41,223 nt of DNA from Elusimicrobiota bacterium. Lineage in GTDB: Bacteria > Elusimicrobiota > Elusimicrobia > UBA1565 > UBA9628. Position 1 is the first letter of the stretch. Each line of letters begins with the position of its first letter. Positions 2,831 to 12,733 of this stretch are shown here, one piece after another. The position numbers and the translations under genes are program-made. The notes under the pieces are model-generated. The model was not told where the DNA came from. It saw only the letters and a program-made list of their open reading frames with translations, and made no database searches. The DNA lies in NCBI GenBank assembly GCA_027452025.1, contig DAIDHI010000007.1:1-41223 (forward strand), in the 5' to 3' direction.

Positions 2831-5800
2831 CTACTTCATCCTCTTGGGATCGAATTGAGACTGCAGGACCGACAGGTAATCGGAATCCGTGGAAAGCGTG
2901 GTTACTGGAAGCTTGGCCGAGGCGAAGGTCTTGAGCAGCGCGGCTTCGTGGCGCCCGGCGGAGGCGGCCTGCTCGGCGCGGAAGACCGGATCGGAGGTAT
3001 CGATCTCGCGCAACTGGCCGCTCTCCGCGTCCATCACCGTGACGATGCCGACGTCGGGCAAGGACTTGGACTCGGCCGGGTCGACGATGCGGAAAGGCCG
3101 CACGTCGTGGCGGGAGGCCAGAGCGCCCAGCTCGCGGCGAAAATCGGGGGCCAGGAAGTCGGAGATCACGGCGACGAGGCCGCGGGAACGCAGCAGCTTC
3201 ATCGCGGCGTCGAAGGCAGGGCGCAGGTCCGTGCCCTGGCCTTGCGGTTGGGCGCCCAGGACGGCCTCGGCCAGACGAAAGGCGTTTTCCGTCCCGGTCT
3301 TCGGCGGGAGGACGCCCTCGATCTTGTCGCTGACGAGAATGGCCCCGACCCGAAGGTTCAAGTGCGCCGCCATGAAGGCCAGCAGCGCCGCGGTGTCTCC
3401 GGCGATCTGGCGCTTGTCCACGCGACGCGTGCCGAACGCGGAGGAGCGGCTGATATCGACGATGAGCATCACCGGATAGTCCTTGTCGAGCTCGTAGAGC
3501 TTCGTGTAGAGCTGGTCCTGCTTGGCCGTCGTTTTCCAGTCGATGTGCCGCACGTCGTCGCCCGGCTCGTAGGGCCGCGACTCGGCGTAGGTCATGCCGC
3601 TGGGGCCGACCAGGCGGGAGCGGAAGGCGCCCGGCGAGACGGCGTTGGCGATCGTGCGCGCCTCGATCTCGAGCTTCTTGGCTCGCTGGTAGACCGTAGG
3701 CGAGACCTTACGGGGCTGCGCGGCGGCCGCATCGCCCGCTCGCCCGCCCCACAGCCGGCCCGCGAGCCAGACGACGGCGGCCAGAGCGGCGGCCAGGGCG
3801 ACGGTGCCGGCGATCAGCGCGAGGCTGGTCCAGGGGACCACGGCGGCGGCCACGGCCAGCGCGGAAATCCCGTAGAGCGGGACGGCCTTGGCCGGATAGG
3901 TGGCCATGATGTCGTCGATCGCCTGGACGGCCCACTGCAAATAGGCGCGCTGCCGCGCCGTCAGCGGCGCGCTCGCGCCGTTCCGATCCCAGCCCTGACC
4001 GGAGGCCAGCCTAGCCTGGAGGAAACTCTTGATGGCGGCGAGATCGGCCTTGGTGTAGCTTTGCCGAAAAATTTCCGAGGTGGACGTCGACTTGACGCCG
4101 GCGGGCGCCAAGCCGGCCTTCTGGAGCGCATCCACGAAACCGCGGCCCGGGAAGGAGGCGTAGCCCTTGGCGAGCACCTCGACGACGGAGCCGGCGACGA
4201 GATCCGCGGGCTGGTTGCCCGGCCTCATCCCGGCGGCCTGCGCGACCTTGAGCAGCTTGGGCGCCAGCAGCTGAGCGTCCTCGAGGCCCGGACGATAAAA
4301 CGACTCGACGGACCCCGTCGTGGTCGCCTGCAGGGCCCGGACCAACCGGACCAAATCGATGAGACGGTAGCGCGAGCGCAGGTGGAACCCGGCGCTTCCC
4401 ATGGCCATCTGCACGCGGTCGATGGCGTCGACGTTGGAGACGATCGTCGAGGTCTGCTCATCGACGAGCCTGCGCGCGGCCTGGGCCAGGGCGTCCGCGG
4501 CGGGGCGTCCGGCTGCCGCGGAGGCAAGAGCATCGAGAACCTGGGCCTCTTGACGCGTCGTGCGAGCGCCGCGCATCACGCCGGAAAGAACCCGGTAAAC
4601 CTGTCCGGCGTCGGCGCGCGAGCCCGCGGCATCGACCAGACGCGGCAGCCGTCCCACCGCTTGAAGGTCGAAAGCGAAATCCTGGTGGCTGCCGGCGTAT
4701 TCGACGGCGAGCTCCACGCGCGAGAGAGCCAGCGCTTCCTGGCCGGGAGCCTCAACGCGCTGCCAGAAGGCCGCCGTCTGGCCCTTCGCCGGCACCGTGA
4801 CCGGGGCGACCTTCCCGGGAGCCGGATAATATCTCGCGCAAGCCTGGTCGACGGCGTCGATGGCCTGGGTCAGATACATCCGCTCCTGGTCCGTCAGCGG
4901 ACGGCGGCTTCCATCATAGTGCCAGCCTTGCCCGGAGGCCAGCAATGCCTGCAGGAAAGAGCGCAGCCTGGCGAGGTCCTGCGGGCTGTAGTGGTCATAA
5001 TAGCCGGTGTCGATGTCGTCGCCAGAGCCTCCTTGCGGAGCCAGCCCCGCCTGCTGCAGCGCCTGCCAGAAGCTCGTGCCGTCGAAGGTCCCTTCGCCCT
5101 TGACCAAGACGGGGTTGACGGCGTCGGCGGCCAAGTCCGCCGGAGCGTCTCCGGCGGGCAGGCCGGCCGCCTTGGCCAGGGCGATGAGCTCGGTGAGCTG
5201 CTGCCGCGCGGCGGCGGCGGAGGCGGCCTGGGCATCGGTGAGTTCTCCCGCCTGCTTGACCCGGGCGGCCTCGTCGGCGACGGCGCTCCGGGCCTCGACG
5301 AGCTGCCTGATCTTGATCTTATCGCGCAATTCGTAGGAGTAGGAGTCGCCGACCATCACGCCGCGATCGTGGAGCAGGGTGTAGAGGTCGTTGAACTCCC
5401 CCTGGGGATCCGCGAGGACCTTCTTGAGCAAGGGGCGGATCTCCATCCGGATCGCGGCCGACAGGGCCGCGGGCGTCCCGGGTCGGGAGTAGACGGCCAG
5501 CAGATGGTTCAGGACGTCCTGGTAATGGCTGGACCAGTCGGTGTCATCCAGGATCTTGGAAAGGACCTGAGCGATCTCATCCGCGCTCGCCGACGACGGC
5601 AGGTGCGCGGCCAGGAAATCGACGGCGGCGAGCTGAAAATTGATGTCCGAGGGATGCTGGTCGAGACCGTTGGCCAACCGGGCGAGGACCAAGGCAGGAT
5701 CGGCGCTGTTCTGCAGCGAAGCCCAGAAGGCGGCGTCACCGGCCGCCGGCGCGGGCGCCGGGGTCCCGTAGTATTTCGCGCCGGCGGCCTCGAGCTGGTC

Positions 5801-12733: not shown

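What the first reader, a model, noticed from the sequence alone, without database searches (positions are those of the whole stretch)
2831..12733. Bat/MoxR-type system condensed into one 3300-residue protein
The frame shows, in order, BatD-like, BatA-like vWA, BatC-like TPR, BatB-like vWA, a large novel helical region and DUF58, followed 16 bp later by a MoxR ATPase. In known genomes these are separate genes (moxR, DUF58, batA, batB, batC, batD), and here the order is nearly inverted. A covalent single-chain version would fix stoichiometry 1:1:1 and may form a membrane-spanning scaffold served by one MoxR. I know of no described equivalent; that is a limit of recall, not a search.
Basis: partly seen in the sequence, partly recalled or inferred. 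Interest (0 to 1): 0.9.

Follow-up and report, generated by a model that had tools for sequence, protein, structure and literature searches.

The report
Single-chain Bat/MoxR membrane system
A little-known group of bacteria carries, beside the ordinary multi-gene Bat/MoxR chaperone-like operon, a second version in which most of the partner proteins are joined into one giant protein of about 3,000 residues, with a fast-changing helical section that seems to be exchanged between lineages.

Summary
The 3300-residue frame is real: minus strand, 2831-12733, MoxR gene 16 bp downstream. Twelve more Elusimicrobiota genomes hold it full-length in one frame (2753-3414 aa); eight others hold incomplete or broken copies. 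Lost stops are excluded.

Order: signal-like segment, Ig/TM/helical protein "X", BatA, BatC, BatB, helical domain, HEAT-type solenoid with 2-3 tandem ~300-aa repeats, DUF58. The first module is X, encoded between DUF58 and batA in the ordinary operon, not Pfam BatD; the "novel helical region" is an alpha-solenoid. The genome also has an ordinary operon, HEAT-HEAT-moxR-DUF58-X-batA-batBC-batD-batE, so the giant is a paralogous second system; its DUF58 forms one clade.

Also found: the repeat array evolves fast and looks mosaic; the BatA vWA has a ~44-aa insert; MoxR starts with a translated signal-peptide-like segment.

Partial bat fusions are in print; six searches showed no whole-system one. 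Best reading: a MoxR-vWA remodelling machine condensed onto one membrane scaffold. Function is untested.

The parts
2831..12733 (-). giant fusion gene, 3300 aa
   Evidence: open frame; 12 full-length orthologues; dN/dS well under 1 outside the repeat array
12644..12733 (-). first signal-peptide-like segment, residues 1-30, with P21, G22 and A28 invariant and A30 nearly so
   Evidence: alignment A8 of 13 proteins; hydropathy; no signal predictor was available
12086..12643 (-). A/P-rich spacer and second signal-like hydrophobic segment, residues 31-216
   Evidence: read
11714..12085 (-). X module, Ig-like beta domain, residues 217-340
   Evidence: AlphaFold model, beta strands; homology to gene X of the ordinary operon
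11198..11713 (-). X module, TM and helical bundle, residues 341-512
10019..11197 (-). BatA module: two N-terminal TMs, vWA with intact MIDAS, C-terminal TM, residues 513-905
   Evidence: Pfam PF07584 and VWA; hydropathy; MIDAS residues
10430..10648 (-). stretch of the BatA vWA from MIDAS T to D, holding an extra ~44-residue helical insert
   Evidence: 72-74 residues in 12 of 13 fusions and 111 in the other, against 29 in 9 of 9 ordinary BatA
9584..10018 (-). BatC module, TPRs, residues 906-1050
   Evidence: Pfam TPR; NCBIfam BatC_Lepto match, below its cut-off
9164..9583 (-). low-complexity Q/K-rich linker, residues 1051-1190
8054..9151 (-). BatB module: TMs and vWA with DxSxS and D, residues 1195-1560
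7364..8053 (-). hydrophobic hairpin and helical domain, residues 1561-1790
   Evidence: hydropathy and alignment; no structure predicted for it
6245..7363 (-). TM and HEAT-like solenoid, residues 1791-2163
   Evidence: AlphaFold from residue 1836, mean pLDDT 84; alphaREP match E 9e-6
3848..6244 (-). repeat array, three tandem ~300-aa units (cores 2164-2328, 2475-2640, 2799-2950), fast-evolving
2831..3847 (-). TM and DUF58 module with MIDAS-like site, residues 2963-3300 and stop
   Evidence: Pfam DUF58 E 2.8e-64
1324..2814 (-). MoxR AAA+ ATPase with signal-peptide-like, A/P-rich N-terminus
   Evidence: Pfam AAA_3 and AAA_lid_2; MoxR next to the fusion in 14 of 14 relatives whose contig reaches that far

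Best explanation
This is a second, paralogous MoxR-vWA system of Elusimicrobiota in which the partner proteins X, BatA, BatC, BatB, a HEAT-type solenoid and DUF58 are one membrane-spanning polypeptide, encoded directly before one dedicated MoxR. Shown here: the architecture, its conservation, intact metal-site and Walker motifs, and coexistence with the ordinary operon. Inferred: the chain stays whole; the solenoid and TPRs hold an envelope client; a MoxR hexamer pulls on or twists the DUF58/vWA modules, as NorQ does on NorD, to remodel or assemble that client. The solenoid array changes fast and appears to be exchanged between lineages, so it is the likely client-recognition part.
For: Frame whole and open in 13 of 21 genomes with a match; the other 8 are incomplete or broken by an N gap or frameshifts. 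Modules matched by Pfam and profile comparison. Metal sites: DxSxS and D in 13 of 13 for BatA, BatB and DUF58; third ligand T in 13 of 13 (BatA) and 12 of 13 (DUF58); S instead of T in 12 of 13 for BatB. MoxR K206, T207, D271 and E272 invariant in 10 of 10 aligned. MoxR next door in 14 of 14 relatives that reach it. Fusion DUF58 is one clade, 100/98. dN/dS 0.07-0.29 in the modules outside spacer and array, 0.16-0.59 at joins. Solenoid model pLDDT 84. NorQ-NorD mechanism: PMC13036017 (abstract and outline seen).
Against: No functional data of any kind. Membrane parity does not close if every module keeps its usual orientation: X should end inside while BatA's first TM should start outside, unless the short hydrophobic stretch before it (residues 511-527) crosses. 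MoxR has a signal-peptide-like start, which would put an ATPase outside the cytoplasm. Pfam BatD is missing from the chain. The array is not exceptional in every pair: L057-L059 and L052-L057 keep 77% and 75% identity there, above their N-terminal spacer.
Confidence: 0.55

Rival explanations
1. Polyprotein: the gene is one frame but the chain is cut after translation into X, BatA, BatC-B, solenoid and DUF58 parts, so the working complex is like the ordinary one.
For: Two signal-like segments at the N-terminus and short hydrophobic stretches before several modules; cleavage would relieve the topology parity; most joins evolve somewhat faster than most modules.
Against: Joins are still under constraint (dN/dS 0.16-0.59). 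Neighbour clusters shared by three or more of 12 loci were read by eye only and none looked like a protease to me; no family search of them was run and no cleavage motif was sought, so this is weak.
Confidence: 0.2
2. The system is a conflict or self/non-self device: the solenoid recognises a varying foreign or neighbour ligand and MoxR-vWA triggers a response.
For: Repeat array fast-evolving and mosaic while most of the rest is conserved; MoxR-vWA systems with diversified partners are described in multicellular bacteria (PMC7159879, passages).
Against: No effector family recognised in the giant; no PADLOC family for it and only weak ATPase matches for MoxR (best E 1.3e-5); it lies next to rho and ridA in the window and 5 relatives.
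Confidence: 0.12
3. Assembly or base-calling artefact: separate genes joined by lost stops.
For: One relative (G260, single contig, 83% complete) shows the frame broken in several places, and the window has a long CAG/CTG-type repeat.
Against: Breaks in G260 run on seamlessly, several inside domains, and BatD and a DUF58 of that genome are split too. The G250 break is at a run of N.
Confidence: 0.02

Closest known systems
Bat/MoxR operon (moxR, DUF58, batA-batE; Bacteroides aerotolerance; Leptospira and Borrelia homologues)
   Same: MoxR next door; BatA, BatB, BatC and DUF58 modules with MIDAS sites; an X-type Ig-TM-helical protein as in the ordinary operon of the same genome
   Different: modules in one chain, rearranged order, no Pfam BatD and no TPR-SH3 protein, added solenoid array, vWA insert, MoxR with signal-like start
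Partial bat fusions (batB-batC in Leptospira biflexa; BatD-TPR-SH3 in Borrelia; PMC3557215 and PMC5700661, passages seen)
   Same: gene fusion of bat partners; batB-batC is also one frame in the ordinary operon here
   Different: the two named cases join two or three modules; other fusions mentioned there (Spirochaeta thermophila, Francisella) are not described in the passages I saw
NorQ-NorD (PMC13036017, abstract and outline seen)
   Same: MoxR-family ATPase acting on a vWA partner
   Different: partner is one vWA protein with a known client, nitric oxide reductase
Midasin/Rea1 (PDB 6or5, matched by the MoxR profile, E 2.6e-11; its single-chain design is recalled)
   Same: a giant chain uniting parts of a MoxR/MIDAS machine
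   Different: eukaryotic, and the ATPase ring itself is in the chain; here MoxR stays separate

Membership tests
Bat/MoxR system | MoxR ATPase gene adjacent | tested here: met
   window 1324-2814 and 14 of 14 relatives that reach it
Bat/MoxR system | BatA and BatB type vWA modules with MIDAS | tested here: met
   Pfam BatA N-terminus 9 of 13, VWA 13 of 13; MIDAS
Bat/MoxR system | BatC type TPR module | tested here: met
   TPR families in 13 of 13; NCBIfam BatC_Lepto 81.2 bits, below its cut-off of 175
Bat/MoxR system | DUF58 protein | tested here: met
   13 of 13; 216.7 bits in the window
Bat/MoxR system | BatD (PF13584) | tested here: not met
   no hit in the giant at E<=1; present in the ordinary operon, 158 bits
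Bat/MoxR system | separate genes | tested here: not met
   one frame
Bat/MoxR system | role in stress or oxygen tolerance | not testable with these tools
   sequence data only
MoxR-vWA ternary conflict systems (PMC7159879) | third component: VMAP, inactive STAND, FtsH or beta-propeller | tested here: not met
   no such Pfam or NCBIfam family listed for the giant; of its neighbours only those were scanned
MoxR-vWA ternary conflict systems (PMC7159879) | MoxR of the beta-propeller type (PF20030) | tested here: inconclusive
   36.9 bits, over the cut-off of 27, but the ordinary MoxR scores 55.4, so the model does not discriminate

The most novel reading that the evidence does not exclude
A MoxR-vWA machine whose partner set is one chain and whose recognition part is a tandem-repeat solenoid kept variable by diversifying selection and exchange between lineages. 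It would be a membrane-embedded, ATP-driven device with a swappable reader, possibly working with a membrane-tethered or exported MoxR.
Probability: 0.2. Interest if true: 0.85.

Novelty: new variant of a known kind. Interest (0 to 1): 0.62.

Why it matters
The Bat operon has been known for decades without an agreed function or a structure of the whole complex (recalled). A single chain that carries X, BatA, BatC, BatB, a solenoid and DUF58 says which proteins must sit together and in what order, and gives one gene pair to express and image. The fast-changing solenoid points at a part that may touch something variable, which the ordinary operon does not reveal.

Tried and rejected
Lost stops or misassembly: rejected. 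BatD as the first module: rejected in favour of X. Replacement of the ordinary operon: rejected; another DUF58 (ordinary or third kind) is found in 20 of the 21 genomes (G256, 72% complete, shows only the fusion's) and BatD in 16 of 21. Homology of the solenoid to the ordinary operon's HEAT1 protein: hhalign gives probability 0.4, E 0.15, so recruitment of that gene is not shown. A shared sorting module on MoxR and other proteins: the MoxR N-terminal profile finds only itself in the genome. Full topology: the charge pattern fits for most TMs but parity does not close; left open. Foldseek TM-scores for the solenoid (about 0.1-0.2) show fold class only. Defence families: none for the giant. The ordinary-BatA spacing first printed was off by two and missed two proteins; one search recounts it (29 in 9 of 9). 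The mosaic pattern was noticed in identity tables before it was tested, so the tested groups were not named beforehand; L061, whose array is shorter, was left out of those trees; mixed-strain assembly of L053 is not excluded. Outside the phylum only the one genome-contig scan was made: 15 loci, 12 in records titled Elusimicrobia or Elusimicrobiota, 2 titled bacterium, 1 weak Cerasicoccus hit. An independent fusion elsewhere would not be found by it, and a control search in another phylum failed.

Full report
WHAT IS THERE. The window holds one minus-strand frame, 2831-12733, of 3300 codons without a stop or an N, and 16 bp further on a MoxR gene, 1324-2814. Upstream lie a RidA-type gene, a gene I read as Rho (Pfam: ATP-synthase-type nucleotide-binding domain), an Asp/Glu racemase, an amidase, a PBP and MreB (Pfam on these six), and further off genes read by eye as ribosomal proteins. 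Pfam on the giant: BatA N-terminus, VWA, TPR and DUF58. NCBIfam's Leptospira BatA, BatB and BatC models match the expected stretches, all below their cut-offs.

IT IS CONSERVED. A search with the middle region (residues 1560-2950) in 340 genomes of the phylum found 21 with a match: 16 in the same family (own genome included), 4 in the same order, 1 in the same class. In 13 of the 21 (own included) the whole protein is one open frame, 2753-3414 aa; identity to the window's protein is 29-45%. Of the other 8, six are cut by contig ends or lie in fragments (G246, G258, G263, G265, G273, G230), G250 has a run of N where the frame changes, and G260 is frame-broken. In G260 the next frame takes up where the last ends (for example at residues 2007/2008 and 2150), and BatD and a DUF58 of that one-contig, 83%-complete genome are split too, so sequencing error is the likeliest cause. 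In a sample of 99 phylum genomes searched with a 3000-residue query, the listed DUF58 matches other than the window's own lie in frames of 282-642 aa (its list is cut). A scan of the 84,980-species collection gave 15 loci: 14 match at 40-53% identity and are this protein or pieces of it (L078 and L081 match over part only and were not examined further), in records titled Elusimicrobia or Elusimicrobiota (12) or bacterium (2); one is a weak Cerasicoccus match. MoxR follows in 14 of 14 relatives whose contig reaches it. Rho and RidA precede the gene in 5 relatives as in the window; the rest are too short upstream or have other neighbours, not counted apart.

SELECTION. In three pairwise comparisons of three close relatives (L053, L057, L059), dN/dS is 0.07-0.29 in X, BatA, TPR, linker, BatB, helical domain, N-terminal solenoid and DUF58, 0.16-0.59 at the six module joins, 0.40-0.45 in the N-terminal spacer and 0.31-1.05 in the repeat array. 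The reading frame is thus kept through every join.

MODULES. (a) The first module has an Ig-like sheet, a TM and a helical bundle (AlphaFold with BatA, mean pLDDT 67, pTM 0.37, a modest model). Its profile matches gene X of the ordinary operon (hhalign probability 95, P 2.4e-8) and BatD only weakly (probability 15). Gene X itself has no Pfam family. Foldseek's best solved match is 4rck, a membrane-spanning Vibrio protein (E 1.9e-7, but TM-scores 0.11/0.37). (b) BatA: MIDAS intact in 13 of 13. From MIDAS T to D are 72-74 residues in 12 of 13 and 111 in one, against 29 in 9 of 9 ordinary BatA; the model makes the extra part helical. (c) BatC: TPRs, then a low-complexity linker; the stretch around it is 76-141 residues. 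(d) BatB: DxSxS and D in 13 of 13, S in place of T in 12 of 13. (e) Residues 1836-2960 fold as one long alpha-solenoid (mean pLDDT 84.4, pTM 0.53). Foldseek's 32 matches at E<=0.001 include the FANCI/FANCD2 complex, karyopherins, SKI, mTOR and TRRAP, which I know as alpha-solenoids; TM-scores are low, so this shows fold class only. One stretch matches designed HEAT-like alphaREPs by sequence (whole-sequence E 9e-6, no single stretch passing on its own). The C-terminal part is a tandem array of a ~300-residue unit, 3 copies in 8 of 13 and 2 in 5 of 13. (f) DUF58: DxSxS and D in 13 of 13, T in 12 of 13. MoxR: K206, T207, D271, E272 invariant in 10 aligned; closest solved relative 2r44 (E 2.3e-114).

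RELATION TO THE ORDINARY OPERON. The same genome has HEAT-HEAT-moxR-DUF58-X-batA-batB/batC-batD-batE on another contig. Ten further stretches from ten relatives show the same order as far as each reaches, with one of the two HEAT genes unmatched in five. Against that order the giant reads X-A-C-B-solenoid-DUF58, then moxR: the X-A neighbourhood is kept, B and C are swapped, and DUF58 and moxR come last. A DUF58 tree of 54 rows puts the 19 fusion rows in one clade (100/98), apart from 29 ordinary rows (92/71) and 6 of a third kind; the program warns of long fusion branches, and the root is at the midpoint. Pieces with too few aligned residues were dropped before the tree: one of L062 (another piece of it stayed) and L091. 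This fits one origin of the giant as a paralogue of the ordinary system.

THE ARRAY. L053 and L057 are 80-98% identical in every 100-residue window from L057 residue 301 on outside the array, but 31-55% over residues 2301-2800 and 65% in 2801-2900, with gaps. There L052, more distant in nearly all other windows, is 69-80% identical to L057. Trees of six rows conflict: in the array L052 groups with L057 and L059 (100/100), in the rest L053 groups with L057 (99/99). Forcing L053+L057 together in the array costs 108.6 log units (p-AU 4.95e-42), and forcing L052+L057+L059 together in the rest is rejected (p-AU 4.3e-4). The groups were chosen after seeing the identities, and mixed-strain assembly could imitate exchange. 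Over ten pairs the array is less identical than the rest of the protein in 10 of 10 (for example 51 against 91%, 77 against 86%), but less than the N-terminal spacer in only 5 of 10. So fast change is general, and the extreme drop belongs to pairs with L053 and to more distant ones.

UNSETTLED: TOPOLOGY AND MoxR. About fourteen hydrophobic peaks outside the DUF58 domain pass the threshold when neighbours are merged. If BatA's vWA is outside, as shown for Borrelia BB0173 (PMC5700661, passages), and X's bundle is inside, an extra crossing is needed before BatA; by eye a short hydrophobic stretch precedes BatA's first TM in about 10 of 13. MoxR begins with a signal-peptide-like, A/P-rich stretch, judged by eye, in the window and the 14 relatives read. 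It is translated (dN/dS 0.28-0.34 against 0.05-0.16 for the ATPase). No signal predictor was available. An exported ATPase would lack ATP, so tethering or another use of the segment is possible; this is not explained.

MECHANISM. From NorQ-NorD (PMC13036017, abstract and outline) and the general MoxR-vWA scheme in PMC7159879 (passages), I infer that MoxR engages DUF58 or vWA modules and transmits force to a client held by the TPR and solenoid parts. The client is unknown. In print are fusions of two or three bat genes or domains (PMC3557215 and PMC5700661, passages). My six searches (listings only) showed no description of a whole-system fusion; they cover open-licence PMC papers alone.

Noticed in passing
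window 12865-12924: A near-perfect palindrome (28-bp stem; -60.9 kcal/mol as RNA for the 101 bases folded, z -11) lies between ridA and the giant gene. The own genome gives 57 matches at about 30 places, the palindromes mostly matching on both strands.
   Followed up: partly
L100 490-1368 (minus): Two half-copies of the palindrome flank a gene that reads like a REP-associated tyrosine transposase (named from motifs I recall, no family search run); the palindrome may be its REP-like element.
   Followed up: partly
L053, L054, L057, L059, just downstream of MoxR: A conserved gene follows MoxR in four relatives of one genus, again with a signal-like, A/P-rich start; it may be nucleotidyltransferase-like (read by eye).
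   Followed up: no
G000 contig C12, L006: A third kind of DUF58. In 5 of 6 stretches fetched from relatives for it a MoxR sits beside it (L091 is counted here by similarity only and is not in the tree).
   Followed up: partly
window 9344-9600: A long CAG/CTG-type repeat encodes the poly-Q linker; relatives have other low-complexity residues at the same place.
   Followed up: yes
window 1324-2814: MoxR ATPase with a signal-peptide-like N-terminus in the window and 14 relatives, unexplained.
   Followed up: partly
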